A DNA stretch of 64,000 nucleotides from Gracilariopsis chorda (lineage: Eukaryota; Rhodophyta; Florideophyceae; Gracilariales; Gracilariaceae), in NCBI GenBank assembly GCA_003194525.1, contig NBIV01000100.1, positions 124,001 to 188,000 on the forward strand, read 5' to 3'. Shown here piece by piece: positions 5,036 to 64,000 of the stretch; position 1 is the first letter of the stretch, and each line of letters begins with the position of its first letter. Both the position numbers and the translations under genes were made by a program. The notes below the pieces were generated by a model. It did not search any database. It saw nothing but the letters and a program-made list of their open reading frames with translations, and had not been told where the DNA came from.

Positions 5036-5091
5036 ACTGATTGCAACCACGTACAGCACCATGTTCTCCCGCATGATGCATCATCACTGTC

Positions 5092-8000
5092 TCTGACGGC
5101 AGCACCTCCTTAGACAGCACTGGTCGCTGCGATGGTGGAAGCGACGACAGCATTGTATCTCCTCGCATTGCAGAGAAAGCAGCGCTAAAGGGCATTGGCA
5201 AGATTGCAGCCATCGAGACCACAAACCTGTCTGTTGCGCTGAAGTCGGGTTCCACACCCCAAAGCTTCGCATTTTCACGCACATGGACAGCCCCACGTAC
5301 TATCTTGCAGTTACCATCAGGGAGTTTGGCCCTCGCCAATATCACGTATCTCGTAGCAGACAATGACTTAGCGTGCGAAGAACTCCTCATCGACCGCCCC
5401 GTTCTGCGCCACCTTCGCGTAGACACTGAGACTTTGCTTGACAATAATAGTTTTGCGCTGAACGAAGCAGATTGCTCCGAAGTTGGGAACCCAACAATGG
5501 ATTTGGAAAAAGGGTACGTCAGCCGTTTGATGATCGCGCGGCTCTACAAAGACGCTGGTCCAACCCCATCCACCAATACACCATCCGTGCTTCCTGCTGA
5601 TCGCCCGAGGGTTAACTATCATGCTGCACGCCAGGAACAAGACCCATTTCCCGACCCCTCGCTGCTTCACTCTGTAAACAGTGCACAGCACGAAGAAATT
5701 GAAAACGCAGTAAGTGGGATGGTCGAGACCGCACGCCAAAATTGCATGGCAGCCCTGCACCTCACCGAGCTTCAAGCCATCTTAACGGAGCACATGGACA
5801 TTTTTCGGGTATCTCTCTCCGTCGGGCCTCCGGCCAACATCAGACCGCTGAAGATCGAGCTTGTCCCAGAAGCCAAACCTGTCCGTGTTTGCCTCAGAAA
5901 CTACTCTCGAGACCAGCGCATATTTCTCCAGAACTTTGTGGAGGACCTCATCCGCACAGAAATGGCATACCCCAACCCAACATCTCGGTGGGCAAGTGCT
6001 CCGCTCATCGTCCCAAAGCCAGGACCAGCCCGTTTTCGGTTCACTGTCGACCTTCGCCCAGTGAACAAACTCACTGTCAAGCACCAGTACCCCATGCCCA
6101 ACATCGAACAAGAGCTTCTCAAGCTCGCTGGATCAGAATGCTTTGCCACTTTCGACCTCTCGCATGGCTATAGGCAATTCTCACTTGACAAAGCCTCCCA
6201 GGCACTCCAGTCTTTCATCACACTGGACGGCATCTTTTCCCCGACGCGAGTCCTGCATGGAACAATAAACGCGACAACCCACCTACAGTCAGTGTTGGCT
6301 GAGATATTCCCAAAGAACCTTAAAAAACTCCTTTTGTATTGGCTCGAAGACATTCCGCTCCATAGTAAAACTGTCGAGAAGCTTCTACAAGGAATAAGGA
6401 AGATCTTCAAAGTGTGCCGCGAATATTCCATTTGCCTCCACCCAAAGAAATGCATCCTATTTGCGAAGTCTATACGGTGGTGTGGCAGAATCATTTCCGC
6501 AGCTGGAGTAAGGTACGACTCGAGAAAGTTAGAAGGACCATTGCGCATGGAGCCCCCGGTTAACGGGGCACATTTGCAGCAGTTCGTATGCGCACTACAA
6601 TGGGTCAAGATGAGCATTCCAGACTTCTCCAACCTCACCCTACCTCTAGATCATTTTCTGGAAAAGGTGTATTCGAAGGCGGGAAAACCTACGAAGACAA
6701 CAGTCGCGAAGGTAGATCTTGACGCCCTTGGTTGGTCCGCAGCGGAGTCAAAGACTTTTCAGGCATGCAAGGAAGCACTCGCACATAGCGTCACCCTTGC
6801 CCACAGGGACGAGAGCCAGAGACTCGTTGTGTACACGGATGCATCAGACAATATTTGGTCGGGCATCATCCCGCAAGTGCCCCTTTCCAACCTCACTAAG
6901 CCACATAATGAGCAACGGCACAGTCCTTTAGCTTTTTGCTCTGGCCTCTTCAACGCGACGCAGCAGGGGTGGTCGATCATAGAGAAGGAGGCGTTCGCCA
7001 TTCTTGCCACTCTTGAAAGAATGCACTGGCTCGTTGCTACATCTTCTGGCTTCGATCTGTACACAGACCATAACAACCTGATTTTGATCTTTGACCCGCT
7101 CTCCATTATCCCGGACCTGAGCCAACCGTCGTTTCGGAAGGTTCTAGGTTGGGCTGTCAAAATAAGCGTCTACAACTACATCTGCTTTCACATCAAGGAT
7201 ATCGACAACGTGTGGACAGACATTCTCACTCGTTGGGCTGCTTCAGAAGCAGTTCGACGACTTGTCAAGGTCCGAGCTCTCCCATGGAGCTCTGCAGCAA
7301 ACTTTGTCAGGCCCAAGCCTGAAGAAATCCGTTCTGAGCAATTTTCAAACGCTCAACATCGCCCGGAAGGACTCCAACAAGAGGAAGGAATCTGGAAACT
7401 CAAGGATGGCGCTGTATGGATCCCGGAAACTTCTGACTCTCTGCAGCTTCGACTCTGCATTATCGTGCACACTGAACCAGCCGGGCACCGAGGCCGTTTG
7501 ACCACATCAAAGGCTTTGAGGAAACGCTTAGCCCGGAAAACGCAGAACAAAGACGTCTTCACATTCGTGCAATCTTGCATTCATTTTATATCGACCACTG
7601 GAGGCGAAAAGGTCCCTAGACCGTTCGGTCCCGCAGTTCATGGCACAGCTCCAAATGACCTTCTGCAGTTCGACTATCTTGAAACTGGGCCAAGCCGAAG
7701 CGGCGAGAAGTATGTCTTGATGCTACGCAACGATCATTCGCACTATAAATGGTTCTTCGCGTTCGCCAACACGGCCGCTGAGAATGCAGCGCAAGCTATT
7801 GTCGATTGGTCCGCAGCCTTTCCAGTACCACAAGGGCTCATGTCTGACGGTCCCACTCATTTCCGCAACGAGACAATCTGATTGCTCTCTAAGTCTCTAC
7901 GAGTGCCACATCATCTTACGCTGCCTTACACTGCTTGGAGCAACGGTGCAGTCGAACGTTTAGGGAGGGAAGTCATTCGCGCTTTTTCGCGCACTCACAT

Positions 8001-20921: not shown

Positions 20922-21712
20922 TGTACTGCAATGCCCAGAAGCGGGAGCGCAATGTTTGGGATCTTTCCTCATTAGAGGTGAGCCCAGTTCGGTAGAGCCC
21001 TCCCAGGAGTGGCACGACTATGTCGGGTTGTAAGGCCGAGGCCACCTGTCGCGACTGCGCAGGGAGGTTGAGGCAAGAATCGGGTATCCGCAAGAGCGGT
21101 GTATGGGGGTGGTTGTCCTCTAGATAGGTGAGGTTTCCACGTTAGTGGCACGCGCGAACACGAGCCGTGGGTAGCGGGAAAGCCACCCTGTGAAGGGGAA
21201 AATAAGGGGGAGCTGAGTCACGAGTGTCGTGACGAAGACTAACGGTAGTGCCGGTAAATAAACCTTATACAAGGCGAACACCAAGACAGCTGGGATAACA
21301 ATCCGAATACTCGGGTCCTTTAGATAGGCAAGGGGGTTAGACTTCCCGTATGCGACGGTGCTTCCCTCCAAAAAGGAGTAGAGAACACGCGAAGGCGGTG
21401 AGGTCTAGAGCCAATTCCCCAGGTTGGGGTCCCTTGTTGGGGAAGGTTTACTGGTGCGATGGCAACCCGCCGGCGCAATAAGTACTAACCATCCCAGAAA
21501 TGGGTGTAAAAATAATAGATAGAATTATCTAAATTACTCCACTTTGGTGGTTCATGCCCACTACTGTGGCCAACCGCCAATTGACTCTTCCGTGTCCGAC
21601 GTGTCAAATCCACTATTAGTGGTCGTAGTTCATGCAATGACTACATTACCGAAACATTCGGGAAATCAACCAAGTATCAAGAATCCCTCTCTGAGGGCAT
21701 TGCATTTCATAT
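20922..21712 (-). repeat. C1 3' LTR
   Basis: On the minus strand this aligns with the C2 5' LTR over its whole length. Shared blocks include CTTCCCCAACAAGGG, TGGGCAT, GCATACGG, ACCCCCTTGC, CTCGGC.TTACAACC, GGGCTCT and GGGCATTGCA. It begins next to a purine tract and ends at TTGCAGTACA. By eye identity is far below that of the copia-B LTR pair, so C1 and C2 are old relatives, not recent copies. Confidence 0.8.
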
Positions 21713-21724
21713 CCCCCTCCTTAG
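21713..21724 (-). other. C1 polypurine tract
   Basis: On the minus strand CTAAGGAGGGGG immediately precedes the LTR start. This fixes the 3' LTR boundary and shows that the antisense ORF at 21922 lies inside the element. Confidence 0.7.
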
Positions 21725-21921
21725 TCGGGAAAGCAACCGCGAACGCGGGCGAATCCCAGTAGAAAAAGGGTGATAAAAGTCCAAACCTCTCCGGGTCACC
21801 GGGTCAAGCCTCTGCCTCAGAAAAACAACCTCCTGCAAAAGCTGCGAACCAGCCTTCCGCAAGTGCACGCTCCTCCTTTTTCTGTTCAACGCAGTCAGAT
21901 CATGCCCTTTCGAAGGGGAAT

Positions 21922-23592
21922 ATGAACATCAACAACAACCAGCCTCCAAGACCGACTCCAGCCGGGAACTTCACAACCGGTTTCCGGTCAGTACCCCTGC
22001 CACAAGGGAGGCGAACTCCTGCACAGCTGGCCAACATTGGCACAGCTACCCAGCATGGGTTCCAACTTCCACCAGCGGTGGCTCCTTCCAGACTGATCCC
22101 AGCGGCGACTTGGCCTTCTTATAACGCAATTGTAGGGTTAGATCTGATGAATCGGAGTCACGCCTCTCGGCTCCGACTTGCGCCGTGGTTTCATCCCATC
22201 GCTGCCCTCAAAGAGGATTTGGTTGCGGCCTACGCGGATGGTTCCGGTACTTTGCCCGCGGATCTACCAAGCCTCGTCACCTCGTTGTGGGACTGGCGGC
22301 ATCGAATCGTCATCCTAGTGCACCATATCCGACGAAACTCGGGAGAATCCGCGACTGCGGCTCATGGGGCGCTGGTGCGGATTGCGTATCAACGGCAGAG
22401 CCGTGCGCCTTTCGAATTCCGGGTGGCTACCAGCTTTGGCTTCGACGTCAGCCTATTCTGCATGCGCGGTGAAATCGGTTACGGCGAACGCCTGGCCAGC
22501 CTCGAAACCCTCGCGTGGAGGAACCTTCCCGCTGCGCAGCAAGAAGCCCTGTGTTGGGAACGACCGATACTTCGGGCTGAATTCCGGTACCTTTCCCGGC
22601 AGTTCCGGTCCAACTTCCTCCAAAACTTCATCCATCATGAACGGCGCTGGCGATTCCGATTCGGGTACTTTGTCGCGTATCAAAACGTGGATATTGAGCG
22701 GATTGCTCCGCCTCACCAACACGGTCCGTACGTCGCACTCCCCAGGTGGTGGAGGTTCCATGAAGCCTGCCAGGGTTGCTACGTTGAACTCCCGCCGGCA
22801 TTCACGTACCTCGGTTTCTTTTTGATTCAGGATCCCCGGTCGGGGCTTTGGTCGGTAATCGTAACCGAGTGGGCTGCCCGCACTGCGGCGTATATCCTTG
22901 CTGAGGTTTATGACCAGTATCGACTGTGGTTCATCCAACCGCGTGTGCGGGCCGCTATCCCCAATCTGGACCTCAGCGTCCCCCTTGGGGGTATTGCCAA
23001 TAATGAACAAGTACTCCAATTTCTTGGTTTGATCGACAGTATTGACTAGCGCGAGGTCCCGCTGGAACAGAGCGGTCGGCTTGACGGCAGCGGTGGCGGT
23101 ACCGGTGGTCCGGGTCTTGGAGGGAACACCGCCCTTGGGGAGGATTTCATCTACTTCGATCCGTGGGAGTTCCGAGAGATTTCCTCCGAGGTGGCGAGGG
23201 AACTCCACGACGCACCGCGGCACGTGCCGGACGACCACCCGATTGCGTACGTCGATTCCGATGATTACTACCGCGCGTATAGCGGCGATGACCTGATGGT
23301 CGATAACGAACCCGAAGAGCCGAGGGACATGAAACTAGACGTTGCCGACATGGTCGTAGACGAATCCCCCGAGGGGGTGCTTCCGATTCCCAGTCCTCTG
23401 ACGGCAAGTGCCGGGCCTTCACTCCCCAGCGGGGATACAGTCATTGAAAGCGATATCATTGCCCGCTTCCTCCGCGGAGCGGGTTTAAGCGCTGCAGAGG
23501 TTTCGGGTGACGTCACCGCGATAGCGGATGCCTTGGCTTACCGCTTTGCGGGTGGTCACGCCCCGGACGATGTTGAGGGGTCGAACCTCTAA
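21922..23592 (+). CDS. Antisense ORF in gypsy C1 (unknown function, one in-frame amber)
   Basis: From the ATG at 21922 the frame is open for 375 codons to a TAG at 23047. It then continues open in the same frame for 181 more codons to a TAA after GSNL at 23590, giving 557 codon positions with a single interruption. Residues 1-60 are Pro/Gln/Thr-rich. Residues 60-375 look like a folded protein rich in Trp, Phe, Tyr and Arg (WDWRHRIVILVHHIRR, RFRFGYFVAYQN). The part after the amber has a Gly-rich linker (GGGTGGPGLGGN) and an acidic stretch (DSDDYYRAYSGDD). No zinc knuckle, transmembrane segment or known catalytic motif is seen. It runs opposite to gag-pol and starts ~200 bp inside the 3' LTR purine tract. 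The product is not recognised; an antisense accessory ORF or the gag of a second, oppositely nested element are both possible. Confidence 0.6.
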
Positions 23593-23713
23593 TCCAGTAT
23601 CCTGGTCTCTTTCCCTGGCTTAGCCACTAATGTAGCTTAGCATCACACAGGAGTGCGAGGCTCCTGAGTAAACTTTCTCGTTTAGAACGGCGTTTTCTCT
23701 TTCATTCCCGTCC

Positions 23714-24195
23714 TTGACGCAGTCCATACAAAAAGAGGGTGTACTCCTTCTTTCCTACCTTCCCCGGCTTCGCGGCGTTTTTATCCCACGTGGGCGTTGC
23801 GCAGCGTACTTGGATTTGCGGTACCCGGGCTGCGGGGATATTGGACCACCTTCGAACGAGGGAGGTATTCGATGGGTTCCATGGTGTCCCAGCTTGGGTC
23901 ATATCCGTACCAACGGACGCGGTATCTTAAAATGCCTTCTTGATTTCCAGGCATGCCCTACGATTTGGTCAATCACAAACTCTTGTTTGTATACCTGCCG
24001 GCCTTGCTGTGTTATGATGACCTCGCTTGTCAGGGGTTGCCCGATGGACCGGATATTTCCCCTCAGGGGTACGTCAGGATGCAACGTGCCGGCTTCGCTC
24101 GGAGGATGCGGCGCAGAGTGCGGAATAATATCCCTCAATTGGGTGTCTTCGTGGAACGGTTGCTGCGTACCGCGGTAGTTGGGTCATACCGCTAG
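23714..24195 (+). pseudogene. Second antisense ORF of C1, possibly frameshifted or spliced
   Basis: Frames at 23739-23930 (TWICGTRAAGILDHL, FDGFHGVPAWVI) and 23953-24195 (LVNHKLLFVYLPALLCYDDL, ARRMRRRVRNNIPQLGVF) read as two halves of one protein joined by a frame change near 23930-23950. A GT...TTGATTTCCAG pair there could also be a ~43-nt intron; this is speculative. The first half has no ATG start. It lies 120 bp after the longer antisense ORF on the same strand. Function unknown. Confidence 0.35.
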
Positions 24196-24879
24196 TTTGC
24201 GGGGGTCCTCAGTCCCATGTTGACGGTATTCCGGTGTGAGCTTGCGGGTATCTTGCCGCTTTGGCGGAGTTGTGGAGGTTACTCCCTGGTGGGGCTTTCC
24301 GCGTCGCGCCATGATTGGTGCGGGGCGCACAATCTCCGTGCGTTCACGTGACTTCCACCGCATGTGGCTCTGGGCCACCTCCCTGCGTTCCGCCTCCCTT
24401 GGCTTGGGCCTTACACTGTCCGGCTGAGCCGCGCACTGCTGTGTTGTCACCCGGTATCCGGCGATTACTTCCGGTGCTCCGGTGTGTTGCATCAAACTCC
24501 CTGATGGGGCTTGGACAGCTGGCGCCGTGGAAACCCTGTTCGGGGACTTTGCCTCTAATTAAGGTGTGATGTCTTTCTCAAGAGGTGCATCATCCGGGAC
24601 GACCGGTTTAACCCTGGTGACGACGCCCGGTTTTTCCGAGACGCTCGGTATATTACCGAGATAGCGCAGAGACTCCGGCACTTCTATCTCCGAAGTTCGG
24701 ACAACATTCCTGTTATGAACGGTTCTCAAGTCCGGGGTAGAGCCAGGGACTTGAGTTGCAAGATGTGTATTCCTGCCTTCCTCCCTCAAGAGGGTCTTTT
24801 CAGTTTCCAGCGTTGCTGGTTTTCCAAGGCGTGCGTGCAATCTGTGGGCGAGCTTCGACCAACCAAACGAGGTAGCCTT
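24196..24879 (-). other. Unassigned 3' part of C1
   Basis: On the minus strand, sequence downstream of DPFCMRIRARLNGGEDLSF (the usual segment between RNase H and integrase) should hold integrase. No HHCC finger or D,D-35-E core is seen. Open stretches such as RTSEIEVPESLRYLGN have no recognised domain. The integrase core appears deleted or replaced. Confidence 0.5.
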
Positions 24880-27578
24880 TATCGTTCACCTCGAACGAGA
24901 GGTCTTCGCCACCGTTTAAACGGGCGCGAATCCTCATACAGAAGGGGTCACCGAATTGTTCTAGGATCAATTATTCCGGTGAAACCGGTACAAAACTTCC
25001 TGGTAAGGGGTTCTCAGGGGTCTCGTGGGATGCGAATAAGTTGTCAAAGTCAATATCTTCATCCCAGTCTTCTGGCCATTCCTCAAATTTCCACTCCGGG
25101 TCATCCGGTTCTTCAGCCATGAAGCATGGAATGTCGTCATCCTCCGTTAGTAGTGCTTCCCAATTTTTGGGTAAACGCGACAAAGTGTCGGCCTGGGTAT
25201 TGAGCGCCCCCTTTTTATATATGACTTGGAAGTAATATTCCGCAAGGCGGAGTCTCCAGTGCATGAGGCGGCCCGAGGGATCGGATATGTTCATTAACCA
25301 CCTCAACGAAGAATGATCCGTGTATACGGTTAACTGAACTCCCATAAGATAGGGGCGTAGGGTAGAAAGCGCCCACACGACGGCGAGACACTCTTTCTAC
25401 GACACAGAGTAATTCCGCTCGTGGACATTGAGCGAGCGTGACCAATAACCAATTGGCCTTCGGTCCCCCTCTGGGGTGGTTTGGAAAAGAGCACAACCAA
25501 ATTGGTAGTTGCTCGAGTCCGTGTCCACGAAGTACGGGAGTCCCAGTTTGGGTAGAGATAAGATAGGTGCTGACGTGACAGCCTCCTTTAAGGAGTTAAA
25601 GGGTTCCGATTGCTCGGGCGTGAATTATACCAATTGTGGGGGATTTCCTTTGCGTAACCCCGCCTTCAACGGTGCCACGATATCCGAAAAGTTCGGGATA
25701 AACCGTCGGTAGACGTTTACCAGCCCTAAAAAGGAGCAGAGTTCCGTTTGAGTGCGGGGTTCCTTAGCCCCAACGAGGGACTTGACTGGAGCCTTCTCGA
25801 TCATTAACCGTCCCGTACGGATGATATGTCCCAGATACTTGACACTATCTGTGAAGAACTCGCACTTCCTCAACTTGAGGGTAATTCCCGCATCGCGGAG
25901 CACCATCAGAACATCCCTGACATGGGTGAGATGGTCGTCCAAATTATTGGAGAAGATGATAATATCATCCAGGGTGGACCAGGCAGCTCCGCCACTTGAA
26001 GCAGTTCAGTAGAATATCTATTGCACGCTGAAAGGTGGCGGGAGCGTTGGTCAAACCAAACGGCATCCGCTTGAAGCGGTACAATCCTGCGTGGCAGGTG
26101 AACGCGGTCTTATCGCGATCCTCCTCTCTAACAGGGACCTGCCAATAACCCCAATTGGCGTCCAAAGCCGTGAATACGGTAGCATCTCCAAGGTAGTCGA
26201 TGCACTCGTCCATACGAGGGATGGGATATGTTTCCCTAACAGTCACGGCATTGAGCCGGCGATAGTTGACACAGAACCTCCAGGTTCCGTCGGCCTTCAA
26301 AACCAGTACAACTGGGGATGCCCAGGGTGATTGAGCGCGCTCTATCACACCTGCGCGGAGCATTTTATCCACTTGAGACTGCTCCTGTTCCCGAGCGTTC
26401 GGTCCTGCCCTGTAAGGGGGTTGTGCCATCGGATGTGCACCCGGTAACAAATCTATCCGGTGTTCCGTAGCATTAATCTCGCCGAGCGAGCCATCCCACA
26501 TCGTGGTAGATTCCCGTAGTATTGTACGGCGTTTATCGCGGTGTGACTTCGGCACATGGCCGAGGTCTATAGCTTCGAGTGCCTGCCTTTATGGGGTCCA
26601 CTCGGTCAGAACGCGCTGTAACATTGTCCTGTGATACAGGTGTGGCCGTCGGTTTCGAGTAATTTGGGTTGTTAGACGTTAAAACAACGGTTTCCTCTCC
26701 CTTCTTTGACGATAGTTCGTCAGTAGTGGGGGTGGCTTCCTCAGAAGAGGCGGCAATTCCAAGATCATCGGCGGTCATCATCCTCGTCGGGAGCATCCCA
26801 AGGGGGTGTGGAGTGACGCTTCCAATTACTTGGTTCGTTACCAGATGCTGGGGGCGTTGGCCAAGATTGGGAACGAGTATCCGAAAAGGAGCGTCTGGGG
26901 TAACGTGAACAGTTCCGTTCGCCAGCGCGAGCTGGTATTTCTCGTATAACGAGGACAGAGGTTGAATAACCCGAAGACCGTGTTGACGGTTATTGACTTG
27001 CACCCAGACTTGGGACTCAGGCGGTATAGAAACCGAGGCTGCGACTCGAAGTTCGATGGACTCGCGAGACGCGGGCGGTGGATCCTGCGCAGCAGGTAGT
27101 GGGACTTGCTTTTGCGAAGCCGCTTCAGCGGGCGACGGACGATCGGGACTGACGATCCGTCGTCGAGTTCCACAAGCCTAAGGCGGGGCCTGATTGCATC
27201 GAGAAATCTGTCGCAGTAATCACACCCCAGTATGACTGGAGCGGCCAATGACCGACAAACAATAAAGTCGAGCTTCACCACGGAGGTGCCCAACCGCACG
27301 ACTAAGTCGACGGTACCCACCGTTTTAAACGGATTGTTATTCGCACCTGCGACGTCGGGAACCGTTTCGGAACGGATAGGAGACCGCACCTGTGGGGTTA
27401 GCAATGATTCCACGATGAAGTTGGGGCCTGCACCTGTGTCCAGGACTGTTGGAAATCTCACCATAAAATAGGTGTCAAGGCCAAGGTCGGCGTAAACCTT
27501 GTAGTTGCGCTTGGCCATGACCAAGACTCTATCCGGGATCCGGGGGTTTTCACTCCGTATCCACGGGCGACGCAGCAC
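24880..27578 (-). pseudogene. C1 pol remnant (protease, RT, RNase H)
   Basis: Reads a retropepsin-like VLDTGAGPNFIVE near 27445, RT with WASPVVLVLKADGTWRF near 26310, ALDANWGYWQVP near 26150 and FGLTNAPATFQRAID near 26040, then, after a frameshift, LDDIIIFSNN near 25950. RNase H follows with VDTDSSNYQIG near 25510, and LTVYTDHSSLRWL and NTQADTLSRL near 25190-25340. Frameshifts lie near 27070, 25960, 25620 and 25390, and the RT box has lost its Tyr (TLDD). C2 has the same protein text up to its RNase H. Confidence 0.88.
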
Positions 27579-27713
27579 AGAAAGGTTTGCAGAGTCCGCG
27601 TCTGCGGTGTCCTTCCTTTGAAAGGATTTTCACCGGGGAGCGAGGCGGCGACGCCTCGTGCGTCAACAGCCTCATCTATGAGGACGCCTCTCCCAAAGGG
27701 GAGACTTTCTCAG

Positions 27714-29115
27714 TTAGTTTTCCTGGGAGGTTCTCGCCGTAGGCGGTAGTCCAGTATCCTCGACCACGAGAGCTTCGTTCCGGGGGCCGGGGTTTTTATC
27801 CGCATAAGCGGTGGTTGCGTCGGACGTTTGCGTGACTTCCCGATTCGGGTGAATTGAAGCTAACCACGCACGCAGGATATGTGGCAAGGCATGCGAGAAG
27901 TCCGTTATAGCACGGAGGTAGGAAGCCGTCGGAACGGAACGCTTCTCCTCTGGAGTGAGGGCCTCGTAATTTGCCACCACCTTGGCCATATCCTTCAGTG
28001 AGCAAAGACACTGAGGGGATGTATGGCCATGGGTATAGCAAAATTGGCAAATTAGAGCCAACACGGTGACGAGCCGGTTAATATCCCGAGCATCGGAGAA
28101 GCGTACCGCCGGGCGGGTGTCATTCCATCCAGGCCGTTGATAACTGGATCGGCCGTTCATAAACGGGACTCGTGGCGGCTGAACGCGATTGTTCCCCACG
28201 TACAATACGGGGTTGTGTTGCGCCGTTTCGAACGTGTCCTCCGTCGTTGAAGGTAAGTCCGTGGTTGGAATAGACACACCATCTCCCTGTGCAAAATGCA
28301 CGGTGTCGTATCCCTGTTGGGGGGTTCTATCAGCAAAGAGCGAGGGCGGTGAGGAGTCACTCTCCAGCAACAACGCCTTGGCAGGCCTAGACCGAGGATT
28401 CGGCGTTCTTACACGAAGTGCTTCCCCTTCCGCTTGAGCTTGTTGAACAAGCTCGAGGTAGGTGATCCTCTGCTTGTCCTCGCGGTAAGGAGTGACAAAA
28501 CTCCGGATTGCCGGGTCAAGGCCATCGATGAAAATGGTATAACGTTCCTCTGCGGGGTATACATTCCCACAACGGTGGAAGGCCTTGTTAAGGCGCACCG
28601 AGTAATCGGTTTCAATCTCGCCTGAGCGCTGACGAGTATCTCAAAAAGTGAGGATTGCCTCCTGAATGGCGGTATTGGTGGCATAGGAGCGCAATAAATA
28701 ATGCATCGCCTCCGGCCAGCAGGTTGCTCCTCCCTCTGCGGCACGAGATGATCCTCTGACAGAGGTGTACTGGTCCTCTGCCACTCCCCGTAAGAAATAC
28801 GGTTATGCCAAATAGGCTTGTCCCTCATTCATTCCGAGGATATCGGCTTCCGCTACAAAGCGGGAAAGAAAGTCCAACACCATAATTGGGTCTTTTCCAG
28901 TAAAATACTGGTTACGCAGTGAGAGTTGCATACGTTTTATGCACTCTTTCACCTTCCCCGTGCCACGGGGTGTACGTCCTAAAGAGAAATCTTCGAGCCG
29001 GTAGAACCGGTAGGACAATAGGTTCCGATACAACGGGTTCGTCGGTTTTAATTCCCTGAGGCCAGGGTGCCTTTTCCCCTTGCTGCGGGTCCGAGTCCCA
29101 CCTTTGTAGTGCACG
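27714..29115 (-). pseudogene. C1 gag remnant (CCHC type)
   Basis: Two overlapping frames with a shift near 28600-28800 match C2 gag from the GG.R.RSKG.RH.GL motif onward. They share NQYFTG.DPI.VLDFL and FIDGLDPAI. The zinc knuckle CQFCYTHGHTSPQC (C-X2-C-X4-H-X4-C, near 28025) is intact, and the frame reads through to TSQEN and a stop at 27714. The N-terminal coiled-coil-like part seen in C2 is absent. Confidence 0.88.
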
Positions 29116-32432: not shown

Positions 32433-35400
32433 ATGGTTATGGTCAAGCGCAACTACAAGGTTTACGCTGACCTTGGCCTGAGCCACCAGTTTATGGTGAG
32501 ATATCTTTCAGTCCTGGACACAGGTGCTGGCCCGAGCTTCGTCAACGGGTCGATTTTACCCCCGCTCTTGCGGTCTCGCATCCGTTCTACAACGGTTCCG
32601 GACGTCGCTGATGCGAATAACAATCCGTTGAAAACGGTGGGTGTCATCGACTTGGTCGTACGCTTGGGCACTTTCGTGGTGAAGCTCGACTTTATTGTTT
32701 GTCGGTCGTTGGCTGCGCCAGTTATACTGGGATGTGATTATTGCGACCGATTCATCGAGGCAATCCGGCCACGCCGGAGAACAGTAGAACTAGAGGATGG
32801 AACCACGGTTCCTATTGTTCGCCGACCGCTGAAGCGGGCATGGCAGAAGCAAGTTCCGCTACCTGCCGCGCAGGAACCACCCCCCGCTGCACGGAAGTCT
32901 ACGAAGCTCCGCGTTGCGGCATCGGTTTCTATTCCCCCTGAGACTCAGGTAATGGTGCAGGTCAATTCCCGTCAACACGGTGTTCGGATTGTGCAACCCC
33001 TTGCCTCGTTGTACGAGAAGTATCAACTTGCCGTTGCAAACGGAATTGTCAATGTGACTCCGGATGTCCCGTTCCGGTTGCTTGTCGCCAATCTTGGCAC
33101 AAAACCCCAGTATCTGGTGAAGAACCAAGTGATTGGATCAGTTACGCCGCACCCGCTGGCCATGCTTCCTACGAAGACTACCGCTGCCGATGTCCTCGGA
33201 ATTGTTGCCTCCGCAGAGGATTCGAACTCCGACGTCGTCGTGTCTAAGGAGGGGGAGGAGGCTACCGCGGCAGCGGACAATTCGCCGAGCACCTCGGAAT
33301 CAACGCCTGAAACAGGAACGCACGTGCCCACGAGCTACGATAGAATCGATCCTATCAAGGCTCTGGAGGACCTTGACTTCGTTCATGTACCGGAGTCACA
33401 CCGTCAACGTCTGCGAGACATGTTACGAGAGTTTACCACTATGTGGGATGGCTCCCTTGGGGAGATTAATGCAACCGAACATCGGATTGACGTGTTGCTG
33501 AATACGCGAACCGTCGCGCAACCCCCATACAGGGCAGGACCGAAGGCTCGGGAAGAAGAACAGTTCCAAGTGGAGAAGATGCTCCGAGCTGGAGTTATCG
33601 AACCGGCTCAGTCGCCGTGGGCATCTCCAGTGGTACTGGCCTTAAAGAGCGATGGAACCTGGCGGTTCTGTATCGACTATCGCCGGCTCAATGCCGTGAC
33701 GGTACGGGACACGTATCCTATCCCTCGTATGGACGAGTGTATTGACTCCCTGGGGAGCGCCACTGTGTTCACAGCATTGGACGCCAATTGGGGATATTGG
33801 CAAGTCCCTGTTCGGGAGGAGGACCGCGACAAAACGGCTTTCGTCTGCCATGCAGGATCGTACCGCTTTAAGCGGATGCCGTTCGGTTTAACCAACGCAC
33901 CCGCCACCTTTCAGCGGGCCATCGACATTTTGATGAGCCGCTTTAAGTGGCGGACCTGTTTGGTCTACCTGGATGACATTATCATCTTCTCGAACAACAT
34001 GGATGACCATCTAGACCACTTCCGAGACGTGTTGACCGTGCTGCGTGACGCAGGAATTACCCTCAACCTGAGGAAGTGCGAGTTTTTCACTGACACCATC
34101 AAGTATCTTGGGCACATAATCCGTCCAGGACGGTTGTCAATCGAAGACGTTCGAGTCAAGTACCTCGCGGAGGCGAAGGAACCCCGTACTCAAACGGAAC
34201 TGCGCCCCTTTTTAGGGCTGGTCAACGTCTACAGACGGTTTATCCCGAACTTTTCGGACGTTGCAGTTCCTCTCAACGCGCTCTTGCGGAAGGGACAACC
34301 ACCTAAACTGGACCCCCTTACCTCCCCTCAAAGGGTTGCTTTCAACTCCTTGAAGGAGGCTGTCATTTCAGCACCAATCTTGGCGTTGCCCAAACCGGGA
34401 CTACCATACTCCGTGGACACGGATGCGAGCGGCCATCAGGTCAACTTGGTCAGCGGGAAATTGCATGTCTTGGGTGACTCATTGTCACGAATCCCCGATC
34501 GTGCGGTGCTCCAACAGATACAGTGTGTGACCCCATCTTTTTCGGAGCTCGAAGAAGTCATTTCCGAGTATGAAAAGGATCAATTCTTTGGACGAATAGT
34601 TGCAGCTATTGCCGGCAAGTGGCCTGAGGACGCTAAGCTACGCAAACGACTGGAACTCATGTTGCCCTCGTTTTCGAAGGATGGCTTGCGCCTACTGTAT
34701 AAGGGAAAGCTTTGTGTGCCCTCTCATTGTCATCGCAAAGTCCTGGAGCTGGCTCATGACTCAAGGATAGGAGGCCATTTTGCATTCTCCAAGACACTTG
34801 CGAGATTGGCTGAATTTCATTGGAAACACCAGGCCAAGGATGTGAAGCGATATTGTGCTGGTTGTGGCATTTGTCAGCAACAGAAAGACTATTCGGGACA
34901 GATGTTGAATGATCCTACACCTCTCCCAGTCCCGACGCGACGATGGGGAATGCTTGCCACAGACTTTATTGTCAAACTGCCAAAGACAGATCGTGGATTT
35001 GATGCCATTGCTACGTGGGTCGACAGATTGTCAAGAAGAGTGAGATTTGTTGCATGTAAGGAATCTGACAAAGCATCGGACGTTGCAAACGCTTTCTTTA
35101 CTGACATCTTTCCACATCATGGACTCCCTGATTCTATTATTTCTGATCGTGACCCAAGGTTCATCTCTTCCTTTTGGCAGGAGCTTATGGGGCTTTGCGG
35201 CGTGAATACACGCATGTCTTCGGCTCGTCATCCTCTAACGGATGGATCATCCGAAGTGATGAATCGCATGGTTGAAAACTGTATACGATGCTTCTGCTCG
35301 TTTGAGCAAACTGATTGGGACCTACTGCTACCTAGTGCCGAGTTTGCTTACAACTCTTCCGTTTCTGAGGATATTGGACTGTCGCCTTTTGAAGTCGATC

Positions 35401-53086: not shown

Positions 53087-55615
53087 TCATGCGGCAAACA
53101 TGATGTCTGGCCTCGATGAGATGGCTATGTACATCAAACTTCCTACCAGTTTCCGGTAGCGGTCATGTACGCCTGATGGAATACGCCGTTCGTCCTCTCG
53201 ACGAGCTGTGATGTCGCGTTGTGACGGCAATGGAGTCCGAACAACGTTGGAGTTAACCAGACCATTTTCCAGCAGTATCTTGTCAATATACCTGCTCTGT
53301 TGTACCTTTATTCCGTTCTTGTCCCTCGTTATGTCAAATCCAACGAAACGTTTCGCCTCTCCAAGTACCTTAACCTTAAAGAGGTTCTGCATCTTTGTCT
53401 TGAAGTCTTCCAGAAGAGACCGGGAGTTACAAGATGTCAGTAAGTCATCAACGACCACTACGATGGCCAAGGTTCCGCTGTTGGACTTGTATATATATAG
53501 TCGGCTATCGGTGCTCGACTGCTTGAATCCCAAGCGCAATAGCTCATTGTGCATGAGAGATCCCCATATTTGACCGGCTTGTTTTGCGCCGTATATTGAC
53601 TTTAGAAGCAAGCATACCTTTCCAGGAACAAATGAGGATCCAGATGCGTTTTGGGGTTGTTCCATGATTAGAGGCTCGTCTAGATCACCGTACAGGTATG
53701 CATTGCTAATATCCATAATCTCTAGTATCAGGCCCTGAGCTGCGGCCTTTGCCAACAAAAGACGAATGGTTTCAAGACGGGCAACCGGGGCGTACAAGTT
53801 GTCTGGGTCGTAATCCAAGTACGGGCGTTGCAGGTCGCCCCGTGCTAAGCAAAGCGCTTTTGGAAGGATACGCGGAGGGTCGGGGCTTAATAATTTTGCT
53901 AAGAACCTCCATAAGAATGGCAATGGTTTCATGCCAGGTTCTCTATCGATCAGCTTCCAAGTTCCTCTTTCCAACAACGCATCGTACTCTCTGTCGATTG
54001 CTTCTGCCCATCCTGGCATCACTCTGGCTTCTTCAAAGCTCTTGGGGACTCTGCCATCATCCCCGAGGTCTTTGGAGCGTGAGTGTGCGATAAGGCAATG
54101 AGCAAGAGAAGCGTCTAGATGGTCTTCATCATCTTCACCCATAATTTTCTCGGCTTCGTATCGTCTGAGAGACGAGAAGTCCATAAGGTCTTTGATTGAA
54201 GGGAGGGACTCCTTGGTAACCTTGAAATCTGCCTCGCGGCACTTTATTACCTTTCCCATGGATGGGATGTATATTCTATACAGTGTCCGCGGGCTTTGCA
54301 TCCCCACGAAGTGTCCAAGAGTAGCGCGTGGTAGGATCTTCTTATTTTTGACGGTTTCAAGCCTATATATGAGCGCATGGCCTTCTTGCCCGAACTTCCG
54401 TAAGTTTGTGAAGTCCGGTTTTTGTCCGAACCATAAGGTGTAAGGAACCTTCATTCCTGCTCGATGATTTGGTAGGCGATTTTTCAAGTAGTTTGCGTGT
54501 GAAATGGCTTCTTCCAATAGCTCATGCGGTAGCTTGGAGGCGAACAGGAATGTTCTAGCCATCTTCCACAAGTCTTGGATGACTTTCTCTGCTACAAAGT
54601 TCGATTGGTGTGCGTACGGTGGGGTGAACTCCAATACTATGCCATTTTCCATCGCGTATGAGACGAAATCGTCTGACCTATTCTCACCCGCTCCGTCAAG
54701 GCGAACGCGGTACATTAGGTTGGGAGGTAGTTCGGTTTCCACGCGAGCATTGTACCAGCGGACAGATTGAAAGAATTGTTTCTTCTTACTTAGAAAGTAT
54801 ATTGAACTTGCCCTTGTGTTGTCGTCAATGAGGACTTGCATATACTTCGATCCTTGTAAAGAGGTCGGGGTTATTGGTCCAGTGAGGTCGGTGTGCGTTA
54901 ACTCCAAAGGTCTCTGCACTACCGAGTTTGATTGCTGAAGTGGAGCACGTTTGATGCCGGCGTCAATGTACGGAGTGCATATGACGTTGTTGACTTCGTC
55001 TGGGAAGAGTTTAGATACCCCTTGACACAAATCAATGCATGTCAAGAGTTTCTCTTTTCCAGGGTGTCCGAGTTTCTCGTGCCAATCCTTGGCTCTGTTG
55101 TCAGGTGCATGTGTTGCAGCTTGTACCTGTGGTGGTGATACGGGGTTCGGTAGGGGATAGAGTCCGTCCTTCGGGGTGGAGTGTTGTATGACTTGGCCCG
55201 TTGTGCAGTCTTTAATTACGAATCCGTTTGAGTATTGCACCTCGACGTAATTCACCAGGACAGATAAGGATACCAAGTTAGAGTCGAAGGTTGGGGTACG
55301 TTTGGCCGGTAACATGAGTCCAGTTCCAAAGGGTAGCTTTATTTTTCTGCAACCTACGATCTCTGACTGGTGGTCGCAAGTGTTTACTGTTTGCAGAGGT
55401 GTTTGGTGATATTCCCAGAACAACGATTTGTCCTTGATGAAAACATGACTAGCCCCAGAGTCCAGCCATGTTGGGGTTATGTTGTCCTTGTGGAGACTGG
55501 CATTAGCTAATGCTATGAATCCGCGGTAGTGGTTCCTGTCTCTGTCGCTGTGGTGGCGGTTAGCGTTTGGTCGCCCTTGGTTGTGGGCGTCAGTGAAGTT
55601 GTTAGAGTCCCAAGC
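53087..55615 (-). pseudogene. copia-B pol: protease, integrase, RT
   Basis: Continuous with gag in frame across a TGA (55616-55618). Protease: WLDSGASHVF near 55450. Integrase: HEKLGHPG near 55095, CTPYIDAG in place of the usual C..C, then Asp in LTHTDLTGP, Asp in RVRLDGAGEN and Glu in VAEKVIQDL, so D,D-35-E is kept although the zinc finger has lost its second Cys. RT: DISNAYLYGDLDEP near 53700, KSIYGAKQAGQIWG, and VVVVDDLLTS as the catalytic box near 53450. The text between PFLWRF and LCLARGDLQRP departs from the family's usual WVFK.K...G....KARLVA, suggesting two compensating small indels. Ends SSRPDIMFAA before a TGA. Confidence 0.9.
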
Positions 55616-56464
55616 TCAATTGTTATTGCGTCCTTCGCCTTTGGTATGTTTATTATTATTGGAGTTTTTATTGTTGGGCTGTTGTTGGTTTTGATTTTTC
55701 TTGCGCCAACATTCGGCCCTGATGTGGCCTATGGGTCCACAATTCCAACATACAACTCCCTTCTTGTTCCCTTTTGCATGCTGCTTGCGTCGGGTTGTAG
55801 TCTTCTTCGAAGCGGGGTAAGGGTGAATGCCATCTTTCTTGGCTTCGGTAGCCTTCGTGGTATATGTCGATGCCCGATGAACACGTCGGTCCATTTCGGA
55901 TCGCACATCCGAAATGACTTGATCGTATTCCATGTTGGTTGCGTCTGCCAATAATGTGATTGCCATTAGTGAGTCTGGCAAGGTACGGAGCAGAGTCGCA
56001 GTTCGCTCCTTTTCCGTGAGTGGGTCACCCAGTCTAGCAAGTTCTAAATAGGTTGCCTCCAACTCGAGTACATGTCTCTGTACGTCGTCGCCATCCTTGA
56101 ATGTCAAGGTGCTTAGCTTTTGGCGGAGGTTCAATTTGGATTGTATGTTGTCCTTCTTATATGTAGACTCGAGTTTATTCCATACCTCCAAAGCAGAGCA
56201 GTGTTCTCTTTCGAGTAGTTCCGAAACTGTGATGATCGGCTGTGTGTCAAGGTTTTGGACGATGGCCGATCTTGCCTTTCGATCGGCGTCGTCCCATCTC
56301 TTTCGAGCTGCAGCGGATCCTTCATTTGGACGAGGTTCCGAAAGCACGAATAATGATTGGAGGGAGTGCATGAGATCCCTAATGTATATGCGCCAAGGGT
56401 AGTAATCGGCGCCCCCTTTTAGACGGGGTATACGTTTATTTTCTTGGTAAGTCTCAGAGTCCAT
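55616..56464 (-). CDS. copia-B gag
   Basis: 282 residues from an ATG at 56464. N-terminal KRIPRLKGGADYYPWRIYIR and the DLMHSLQSLFVL helix, a UBN2-like copia capsid layout (CSALEVWNKLESTY, RQKLSTL, ELARLGDPLTEKE, LLRTLPDS), a basic linker, and one zinc knuckle CWNCGPIGHIRAEC (C-X2-C-X4-H-X4-C) near residue 240. A Lys/Asn/Gln-rich tail ends at TGA, beyond which the pol frame continues in phase. Copia-A has sense codons at that point, so the family's gag-pol was probably one continuous frame. Gag packages the element RNA. Confidence 0.9.
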   Translation of the reverse strand: MDSETYQENKRIPRLKGGADYYPWRIYIRDLMHSLQSLFVLSEPRPNEGSAAARKRWDDADRKARSAIVQNLDTQPIITVSELLEREHCSALEVWNKLESTYKKDNIQSKLNLRQKLSTLTFKDGDDVQRHVLELEATYLELARLGDPLTEKERTATLLRTLPDSLMAITLLADATNMEYDQVISDVRSEMDRRVHRASTYTTKATEAKKDGIHPYPASKKTTTRRKQHAKGNKKGVVCWNCGPIGHIRAECWRKKNQNQQQPNNKNSNNNKHTKGEGRNNN

Positions 56465-57757
56465 CGCGGAGTATCACTCAACGCGAGACTAAGGGAGACT
56501 GGCAGATAGAATCCTTCACCGGTCCCCTACCGGTTGAGGGATCCTTCTACTACTTTTGCGTAGCCGGGTCCACTGGCAGGAGATACTATCTCCGGTTCCC
56601 TAAAGGTCAGACCTCTGGCTCCGAGTAAGACTCTCTCGGTGAGATGCGATTTCAGCGGCCCGTCCAAGTTCTGCAGAATCCAGAACGAGGGTGCGTGCAA
56701 CCTACGGAATGTCCAGGAGAGGTTACTAAAAACGTGATATGTGTTCACGAGTTGGCCTCCTCTGTTTCCTTACGGCTACTTGCGCGGCGATCTTGCTCCT
56801 TGAAACGTTCTTGTCTTCACTAAGGTCCGGGTCGAACGACGAGACACCCTGTCCTCTTACGAACAGCTACACGCACCCCAGCTGAGCCAGTTATACGGCT
56901 AGTGCGCTATCCGCAGGCTTAGTTCAAGTCCCCAGTCGATTCCCAACCGGTATTCGGCTTGCAAACCTTAGCTCAGCCAAGTGCTAACTTCCCTGAAGGG
57001 TTAATAGCGGCGGAGGCCTTATTCAGGACTTTATATAATAGTTCCAGTTCACCGTCTGTGTTGGTGGTCCAATGGTGAAGGCGGTTATGCGGAGCGTGCA
57101 GTAACTGCGATGTGTCGCCACTAGAAGCTCCAGGTGACCGGTCAAGACCACAAGCCAGGGGCAAGGGTTGTTCAACAACACGGTGGCTTTCAAGAAGCTT
57201 CTAGTGCGCACGCTCTAACACAACGCCGGATACGGGGGGATTTTGGCTGCGACTCAACAATGGGCGCAGGCGGGGGAAGTTTGTCCAGCGTGTAGTAGGC
57301 GGATTGTGCACGTGCACGGGCTGCCGGGGGGGGGGAAGATTGTTCGAGAGCAGCACACCAGTAGGCGCAAGTCTTGCGCGGAGAACGCGGACTGTGCACG
57401 GGCTGCCGGGGGACATAAGATGGTTTGGGAGCGCAACACGAGTAGGCGCAAGTCCAGCGTGGAGAGGGCGGAGTGTGCACTGGCTGCCGAGGGGCGCGAG
57501 ATGGTCTGGGAGCGCAAAACGAGTAGACGCAAGTCCAGGAAAAAGTTGTTGGGCGCAAGGCGCGCCGAAGGCGCAAGTGCTATAGAGAGTGGAGAAGGTT
57601 GGCGTTTTTCACTCTTTTGTGCAGATAAGCCATGCGTTTTTCGAGAGAAGCCTAAAGCAGGGTTTATTCAGTGTCGGCTTTTGTGCCGGTGGTTGCTGTG
57701 TCTTTTAGGTTTTCGATACTGTTCACGATACGTTTTTCTCACGTCGACGGTGTTATC
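56465..57757 (-). other. copia-B untranslated leader
   Basis: About 1.3 kb between primer site and gag ATG, very long for a copia leader. No conserved frame with copia-A, whose leader is homologous only at its two ends. The middle is a minisatellite (next entry). Confidence 0.75.
57268..57545. repeat. 81-bp minisatellite in the copia-B leader
   Basis: About 3.5 units with an exact 81-bp period: AGCGCAAxACGAGTAG.CGCA starts at 57349 (variant), 57430 and 57511, each followed by GTGCAC.GGCTGCCG. As 81 is a multiple of three, frames on both strands stay open through it, which explains the repeat-rich open stretches here; they are not genes. Confidence 0.85.
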
Positions 57758-62930: not shown

Positions 62931-63290
62931 CTATGGGTCAGTACAGACATCTTTCAGCCGCCCTTCAACCACCAGATTATAAAGGCTTGAAGATCTCAAG
63001 AATGACTTCACCAGTCCCGTTATCGCCCTGTGCGTGATTTCAATGCTCTTCGCTCTGTCCCATGTATACCCGTAGTTCTTCAGGGGATTTTCATTCGCGT
63101 CAGCGATATCCAGGCCTGGTCCACCACGAATGTGAGTCCGAAGAGCCGGCGGTACTAATTCAGAGTTGATAAGGTTGGGCGCGGCCCTTGTATCTAAAAG
63201 AAAACTGGCAAACCATATATTGGTTGGACAGGCCAAAACTTGGCATAAACGTTTTAGTTTCTCTTGGCCATGATCAGAGCTCTATTTGGA
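62931..63290 (-). pseudogene. Family-C gypsy protease remnant (third copy)
   Basis: Minus strand, with frameshifts: LRHPWIRCHT (C1: LRRPWIRSEN), ALIMAKRN, FLLDTRAAPNLINSEL (C1: VLDTGAGPNFIVE) and IADANENPLKNYG (C1: VAGANNNPFKTVG). The catalytic DTGAG has become DTRAA, so it is dead. The match fades near 62931. Confidence 0.75.
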
Positions 63291-63530
63291 CTACGAAAAG
63301 TATGACAACGTATCCACGGATGACGTAGAACCAAGATGGCATCTCAGCTCACGGTAGTTTCAGCCATGTTCCTAGTAATGATCTTGACGGCGGGGGAGCG
63401 AATCCATACCGTTTTTGGCGTCAAATACGGCTCGAAAGGCGCCCTTTTTATAGACAAGACTCCCCAATCTAGTTTTTCGAAGAGGTATTTACCGAAGTCG
63501 ATGTCAGTATCCCATGTTGCGAACCAGAAT

Positions 63531-64000
63531 TAATCCCATTCGGTGATACGACCAAGCTCACTGGTTGATCAGGTTTTCGTTTAACTAGGGAAATATTCGT
63601 TCGTGCCAGTGTGGTTTTTGCGAGTAATGCTTTCAATTCTTAGTATGAAGTACTTGGCACTTGGGCTAAACCAGGCGGGTCAGCACTTCGTAATTCATAA
63701 TGTTTCTGCGCACCTCTCGGAAGTTCAAGTCACATTTTGGTAGAATATGACCGTAATGGTAACCTATATGACAGATAACCGGTGCTAGTTTACCGTATGG
63801 GCGGTGGCTTTCCGTTTGACGTTGCTGTTTCGGTACGACCTATCCAGAGCGGGTAAGACGCTATGTGTTTGACACGTGAGCGAGCATAGTGCCCTGAATC
63901 CTTGCCACACGGGCGTAGAAAGCGTGTTTTTCTTTCAAAATCGGGGCCCATGTTGACGGCAAGTTTATAGTCCCAAACGTATCATAGCGACTTTCTGCGT
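63531..64000 (-). pseudogene. Family-C gypsy gag C-terminus (third copy, runs off window)
   Basis: Minus strand: PVICHIGYHYGHILPKC near 63770 corresponds to the zinc knuckle CHLCYTHGHTSPQC of C2, with the second Cys replaced by Gly. It is followed by a NYEVLT-like block, VPSTSY and SLVVSP, and a stop near 63531 at the same place as the gag ends of C1 and C2. The order gag then protease matches the other copies. The rest lies beyond the window. Confidence 0.65.

What the first reader, a model, noticed from the sequence alone, without database searches (positions are those of the whole stretch)
21922..24195. Long antisense ORFs between RNase H and the 3' LTR of gypsy C1
C1 is fixed on the minus strand by gag, pol, a polypurine tract (21713-21724) and a 791-bp 3' LTR. 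Between RNase H and that tract lies a plus-strand frame of 557 codons with only one interruption, while gag and pol on the other strand have several frameshifts. Antisense ORFs at this place are known in plant Tat/Retand-type gypsy elements. A protist or algal family with an unrelated antisense protein would be new. No known domain is seen. This is my best candidate for an undescribed system.
Basis: partly seen in the sequence, partly recalled or inferred. Interest (0 to 1): 0.8.

Follow-up and report, generated by a model that had tools for sequence, protein, structure and literature searches.

The report
Antisense gene in red-algal retrotransposons
A family of retrovirus-like jumping genes in what looks like a red alga carries an extra protein gene on the opposite strand, kept by natural selection and unlike any protein family we could compare it with.

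Summary
Window 21922-23592 (+) is one frame of 557 codons with a single stop, opposite to gag-pol. It is a real gene, not chance. The host genome carries dozens of copies; in two subfamilies (B, D) most listed places have no stop, and B elements are young (LTRs 99-100% identical). Between subfamilies A (the window's) and B, dN/dS is 0.19 (bootstrap 0.15-0.24), with 99/79/247 changes at codon positions 1/2/3. One reverse frame mirrors this pattern (0.33) but holds 39 stops. Private changes look neutral, shared ones constrained. Four subfamilies (A, B, D, E; 36-72% amino-acid identity) carry the gene at the same place and orientation: tail-to-tail with a chromodomain-bearing pol, starting some 55-60 bases from the 3' LTR in A and B. 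The second small frame (23953-24195) is the shadow of pol. The window copy lacks the integrase, which is why RNase H lies so near. The host is most likely a red alga (phycobilisome-linker genes on three of the same contigs). The kind is known: antisense accessory ORFs of plant Grande/RIRE2/Retand and fungal Boty (brtn). The protein matches nothing in Pfam or the PDB. Expression and function are untested; I infer a soluble accessory regulator transcribed from the 3' LTR.

The parts
20934..21709 (-). 3' LTR of the element (sense orientation is minus); its inner edge faces the antisense gene
   Evidence: of 40 scored matches 26 stop at query 776-780; 21384-21534 is its best conserved block between subfamilies A and B (86-88%)
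21713..21724 (-). polypurine-like tract next to the 3' LTR
   Evidence: Sequence; a similar C-rich stretch at the same place in B and D, seen by eye
21766..21921 (+). N-terminal part of the antisense gene as judged from relatives; the start codon used by relatives is not present in this copy
   Evidence: (B protein aligns from residue 2 at window 21769)
21922..23592 (+). Antisense accessory gene (595-633 aa in the uninterrupted relatives measured), here with one stop at 23047-23049
23784..24660 (-). C-terminal part of pol: chromodomain end (23784-23945) and linker; runs tail-to-tail with the antisense gene
   Evidence: matches residues 1594-1884 of the subfamily-B pol; PF00385 at 1820-1867 of that pol
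24661..24838 (-). Junction region where the integrase part of pol (about residues 974-1593) is missing in this copy
24839..27774 (-). Decayed pol up to RNase H, in several frames; RT and RNase H matched Pfam, the protease was recognised by eye only
27735..29060 (-). Decayed gag
   Evidence: 79% identity to the part of subfamily-B gag used as query, 2 stops
23953..24195 (+).
   Evidence: lies opposite the pol linker; open in 28 of 38 copies, its reverse frame in 23 of 38; shared changes 4/3/2 by codon position

Best explanation
It is an accessory protein gene that belongs to a lineage of chromodomain-bearing Ty3/gypsy retrotransposons of a (most likely) red alga. Shown: the gene is coding, was under purifying selection while the elements were active, and lies inside the LTRs on the strand opposite to gag-pol, convergent with pol. 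Inferred: since its start lies only some 55-60 bases from the LTR edge (A, B), its promoter is probably within the 3' LTR. There an antisense transcript starts, runs away from the LTR and ends before or in the 3' end of pol. The product is a soluble protein of about 600 aa with a conserved core whose unchanged residues are richest in Arg, Pro, Leu, Glu and Trp, and an acidic C-terminal part. It most likely acts in trans on the element's own cycle, as a regulator of expression or silencing or of the nuclear steps, as proposed for plant aORF-3R proteins. Likelihoods: coding accessory gene of the element about 0.95; promoter in the 3' LTR about 0.7; regulatory role about 0.4.
For: Copies: 40 scored places in the first DNA search, the window included. 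Protein search (109 places): 33 of subfamily A, 5 of them without a stop over the 375-codon part (the window itself is one of the 5); 76 others, 70 without a stop. Subfamily D: 53 of 70 places without a stop. Selection: A versus B dN 0.178, dS 0.93, ratio 0.19 (0.15-0.24), changes 99/79/247 by codon position; the 39 A copies against one B copy 0.17-0.28, median 0.20. B-E 0.38/1.33, A-E 0.38/1.47 over the part of E read. Stops in 38 copies: 106 in 21069 codons in this frame, 355-812 in the other five. Singletons N:S 292:95 in A and 85:33 in B; changes shared by 4 or more copies 52:33 and 19:24. Inside the element: 7 same-strand LTR pairs about 10.7 kb apart, a B gene in each. Whole pol with RT, RNase H, integrase and chromodomain in a B element. 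An E element chosen by its RT/RNase H stretch also carries the gene. No hydrophobic stretch of membrane type. An ACGTG motif lies 167 bases upstream of the start in A and B and one lies in the D LTR (a five-base motif may be chance).
Against: No RNA or protein evidence. One reverse frame also shows a low ratio (0.33; 78/97/248), since its third positions coincide with those of the gene; its 39 stops speak against it. Within subfamilies the pairwise ratio is higher, median 0.64 in A and 0.33 in B, as expected for decaying copies. No TATA-like motif was found in the A and B LTRs; CCAAT boxes of A and B are absent from the D stretch. No run of 3 or more K/R in A or B, one in D. No fold: single-sequence AlphaFold2 gave pLDDT 30. 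The regulatory role rests on analogy. The searches were seeded mostly with the gene itself, so the share of elements lacking it was not measured.
Confidence: 0.72

Rival explanations
1. The antisense transcript itself, not the protein, is what matters: pairing with sense RNA it feeds or tunes small-RNA silencing.
For: The host has Argonaute-like genes: two long Piwi-domain matches without stops. The antisense gene and pol are convergent, about 200 bases apart in B. PMC7264820 (passages) raises this for plants.
Against: Selection acts on the amino-acid sequence: third-position excess and dN/dS 0.19, 112 of 391 shared columns invariant over four subfamilies. An RNA role alone does not predict that.
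Confidence: 0.06
2. The protein is a structural or integration partner (for example packaged with the particle, or helping the chromodomain integrase), not a regulator.
For: It sits next to a pol with a chromodomain end in the four subfamilies examined (Pfam match in B; A, D and E by alignment to B pol). It diverges faster than pol: B-E 56-58% amino-acid identity against 76% for pol residues 1-770 of the E-type element in the window, as gag-like proteins do.
Against: No domain match. An antisense gene would be expressed apart from gag-pol, which is odd for a particle part.
Confidence: 0.25
3. A foreign element or captured host gene nested in some copies.
For: No homologue of known function, so an origin by capture is open.
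Against: Four subfamilies carry it at the same place and orientation; it lies inside the LTR pairs of B. If captured, it was before the subfamilies split.
Confidence: 0.04
4. Chance open frame, or the shadow of a sense gene.
For: True for the small frame 23953-24195.
Against: Shuffles never reached the open run (0 of 500). The five other frames hold 17-39 stops between one A and one B copy.
Confidence: 0.01

Closest known systems
Boty and its antisense gene brtn (Botrytis cinerea; also named for Sclerotinia sclerotiorum)
   Same: Antisense gene between pol and 3' LTR of an element whose gag-pol has a CHROMO domain (PMC7264820 and PMC4227169, passages)
   Different: Fungal host; no brtn sequence was at hand, so homology is untested. 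The label 'brtn-106' in PMC4227169 may point to a shorter product; that reading is a guess. Zhao et al. 2011 was not seen, only its citation.
Plant Retand, RIRE2 and Grande elements with aORF-3R (their Tat grouping is recalled)
   Different: Retand is a non-chromovirus lineage; 97% of its clusters carry the TRP28 domain (PF04195), which was not listed for any of the proteins scanned here (cut-off E = 10, but the filters drop most matches above about 0.1)
PvRetro13 ORF2 (SMC-type aORF-3R)
   Same: Antisense gene at the same place (PMC7264820, passages)
   Different: No SMC family was listed here
Antisense genes of deltaretroviruses (HTLV-1 HBZ)
   Same: HTLV has an antisense promoter inside the 3' LTR (PMC7264820, passage); works-like comparison only
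   Different: No sequence relation tested; the name HBZ and its details are recalled

Membership tests
aORF-3R (antisense accessory ORF between pol and 3' LTR) | Lies between pol and 3' LTR, opposite to gag-pol | tested here: met
aORF-3R (antisense accessory ORF between pol and 3' LTR) | Kept in most copies, with coding constraint | tested here: inconclusive
   Constraint met. Share of elements that carry it not measured: most searches were seeded with the gene; 7 of 7 LTR-seeded B pairs and 1 of 1 RNase H-seeded E place have it
aORF-3R (antisense accessory ORF between pol and 3' LTR) | Antisense transcript | not testable with these tools
   No RNA data
Retand-type TRP28 accessory gene | TRP28 domain PF04195 | tested here: not met
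   not listed at a cut-off of E = 10 (filters drop most matches above about 0.1)
Retand-type TRP28 accessory gene | Non-chromovirus carrier | tested here: not met
   Chromodomain PF00385 at the pol C-terminus; RT clade not tested
brtn of Boty | Sequence homology to BRTN | not testable with these tools
   No BRTN sequence in the tools; the 2011 paper was not seen
brtn of Boty | Antisense gene 3' of a chromodomain pol | tested here: met
Chromodomain-bearing Ty3/gypsy element (chromovirus) | Chromodomain at the C-terminus of integrase/pol | tested here: met
   (PF00385, E 4.7e-10, in subfamily B)
Chromodomain-bearing Ty3/gypsy element (chromovirus) | RT falls in the chromovirus clade | not tested
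   No RT tree was built; Ectocarpus chromodomain gypsy lineages are said not to be related to chromoviruses (PMC12477816, passage)
env-like third gene | Sense orientation and membrane segments | tested here: not met
   Antisense; highest 19-residue hydropathy 0.95-1.31
Nested foreign element | Present in a few copies only, at differing places | tested here: not met

The most novel reading that the evidence does not exclude
A so far undescribed protein family, carried antisense by chromodomain gypsy elements of red algae since before their subfamilies split, that arose independently of the plant and fungal antisense genes and controls the element (or blocks its silencing) from a promoter in the 3' LTR. 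It would be a convergent invention of an HBZ-like layout in another branch of eukaryotes.
Probability: 0.35. Interest if true: 0.68.

Novelty: new variant of a known kind. Interest (0 to 1): 0.52.

Why it matters
Antisense accessory genes of LTR retrotransposons have been seen for years without a known function (PMC7264820, PMC11963269, passages). Here is one with a clear selection signal, in many young copies, in a host lineage for which I found none in print (literature searches: open-access papers only, and each lists just the top 12-20 of its hits). It suggests that such genes turn up again and again next to pol in unrelated hosts, and it gives a clean set of sequences with which function can be tested.

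Tried and rejected
Second frame 23953-24195 as a gene: rejected, shadow of the pol linker.

Fungal host: my first thought, from RPB2 (top PDB matches 3h0g, 5ip7 and 1i3q; that these are fungal and 28jc human is recalled, the call names no species). Seven phycobilisome-linker matches lie on contigs C12, C427, C153, C88, C144, C101 and C60, of which C88, C101 and C60 also carry copies of the gene. That red algae keep such linkers and few introns is recalled. A glaucophyte is not strictly excluded. I did not identify the species.

Fold: one AlphaFold2 job on the 375-residue window part alone gave pLDDT 30 and pTM 0.18, useless, so no fold search was made.

Relatives elsewhere: none in viral contigs (19 pattern matches, 0 confirmed). 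No other red algal genome was at hand. PDB profile search: 0 of 177635 distinct sequences.

An element without the gene: the plus-strand element in the window (C2) seemed to be one, but its 3' half is joined at a junction that none of the other 39 scored matches spans, and the family of its 5' half does carry the gene at the one place looked at.

Rows set aside: L033 and L039 (partial copies) were left out; one search also left out L030 and L034; one search left out L033 and L039 from A, and L055 and L056 from B; three short pieces were not counted as places. In one search I split A from the rest by table position after row 33; two diverged places (C56:296417, C107:187836) fall in the rest. 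The bootstrap and shuffles are from one script.

Full report
What is there. On the plus strand of the window, 21922-23592 is one frame of 557 codons with a single stop at 23047-23049. It lies between the 3' LTR (20934 to about 21709) and the C-terminal end of pol (chromodomain end at 23784-23945 on the minus strand). Relatives show that the gene begins about 156 bases upstream of 21922. Its start thus lies some 55-60 bases from the LTR edge.

The window copy is damaged. Its pol matches residues 1-973 and 1594-1884 of an uninterrupted relative; the missing part holds the integrase domains (H2C2 at 975-1032, rve at 1049-1146). The other copies part from the window at about 24840; the one read out, L004, has there an integrase-like C-terminus, a linker and a chromodomain-like end (by eye). 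So the closeness to RNase H is an accident of this copy. No second LTR was found in the window.

Copies. A DNA search of the window's genome (91.3 Mb, 1081 contigs) gave 40 scored places of the segment; the 39 besides the window are 82-92% alike to it, two of them partial. A protein search listed 109 places: 33 of the window's subfamily A (5 without a stop in the 375-codon part, the window included) and 76 others, all but two at 71-73% identity and called subfamily B here, 70 of the 76 without a stop. A third subfamily, D, was met in locus L040; 53 of its 70 listed places have no stop. These counts are lower bounds, since only the best candidates are scored.

Intact, young carriers. Pol is one open frame of 1875-1884 codons in 2 of the 6 ten-kilobase loci read (L041, L043); in L041 it has RT, RNase H, integrase and chromodomain. 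A search with the L041 LTR listed 40 scored matches, among them seven same-strand pairs about 10.7 kb apart (C66, C8, C161, C23, C46, C290, C135), all 99-100% identical to that LTR; the second LTR of the L041 element itself is 100%. Each pair encloses a B accessory gene. The gene is therefore inside the element and travels with it. LTR pairs of A, D and E were not checked this way.

Selection. Between a stop-free A copy and a B copy dN is 0.18 and dS about 0.93; the ratio is 0.19, bootstrap 0.15-0.24. Changes fall 99/79/247 on codon positions 1/2/3. The five other frames have ratios of 0.33-2.11 and 17-39 stops; the one at 0.33 is the reverse frame whose third positions coincide with those of the gene, and it has 39 stops. 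The 39 A copies against one B copy give 0.17-0.28, median 0.20; pairwise within A the median is 0.64, within B 0.33. For comparison the pol chromodomain end gives 0.17/1.41 and linker plus chromodomain 0.53/1.02. Changes private to one copy are near neutral in make-up (N:S 292:95 in A, 85:33 in B), those shared by four or more copies less so (52:33 and 19:24). This is what one expects if selection acts while the element is active and stops when a copy dies. Over 38 copies the frame holds 106 stops in 21069 codons, the other five 355-812; only 3 of the 38 are fully open, so A is an old, decaying subfamily.

Age. A fourth subfamily, E, was reached through an RT/RNase H stretch, not through the gene. 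The one E place looked at carries the gene in the same place and orientation. Identity between subfamilies: A-B 72%, B-E 58%, A-E 56%, B-D 40%, D-E 40%, A-D 36%; 112 of 391 shared columns do not vary (E with its first 483-codon stretch only). With D the synonymous distance is very large or saturated. The gene was thus present before these subfamilies split.

The protein. 595-633 aa in the A, B and D copies measured, pI 5.2-5.9, no membrane-type stretch, an acidic C-terminal part. Most unchanged positions lie in the central part, and are richest in Arg, Pro, Leu, Glu and Trp. Pfam lists only chance-level matches for the five members of alignment A1 and for E; the PDB gives none by profile. The single-sequence fold is worthless.

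The host. Seven phycobilisome-linker matches lie on contigs of this assembly, three of which also carry the gene. With long open frames in three polymerase-subunit genes this points to a red alga. The species was not identified.

How it may work. The closeness of the start to the LTR means that a promoter probably lies in the 3' LTR; the best conserved LTR block between A and B (21384-21534) lies 230-380 bases upstream, and an ACGTG motif 167 bases upstream in both, with one in D too. No TATA-like motif was found in A or B and CCAAT is not shared by D. The transcript would converge with pol, whose end is about 200 bases away in B. The host has Argonaute-like genes, so convergent RNA could feed silencing, which is one reason why a protein that regulates expression or silencing is a sensible guess. 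This part is inference.

What is known. [quoted passage not shown] Retand carries TRP28 in 97% of clusters (PMC11963269, passages). Boty is a chromodomain element with brtn (PMC4227169, passages), a BRTN-like transcript is reported from Monilinia (PMC5987419, passage), and PMC8365987 notes that brtn is missing from the current annotation (passage). Ectocarpus gypsy elements with chromodomains are described in PMC12477816 (passages); no antisense gene is named in the passages seen. Passages of PMC5348765 and PMC5408684 held nothing on antisense accessory genes. I found no red algal case in searches, which cover open-access papers only and list only the top of their hits; the Bostrychia genome paper cited in PMC12477816 was not seen.

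Verdict. Real gene, real constraint, known kind; a protein without known relatives in a host lineage where I found no report: a new variant of a known kind.

Noticed in passing
window 34437-34442: The plus-strand element C2 (gag match from 30901, pol from 32184) is a chimera: left of this point it matches one group of elements (35 of 40 scored places), right of it another (4), with a 6-base overlap; only the window itself spans the junction.
   Followed up: partly
contigs C483, C648, C777, C944 of the window's genome: Piwi-domain fragments, many with stops, recur at a spacing of about 8 kb on several contigs, beside two long uninterrupted Piwi-domain matches on C77 and C163; they look like part of a repeated unit.
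   Followed up: no
window 6733-7998: Another, distant gypsy-like pol (23% identity to subfamily-B pol) within a long plus-strand frame 5077-7878.
   Followed up: no
window 53090-56473, minus strand: Two long adjoining frames that by eye look like a copia-type element.
   Followed up: no
window 62961-63971, minus strand: Weak gag and pol matches at the window edge: perhaps a further gypsy relic.
   Followed up: no
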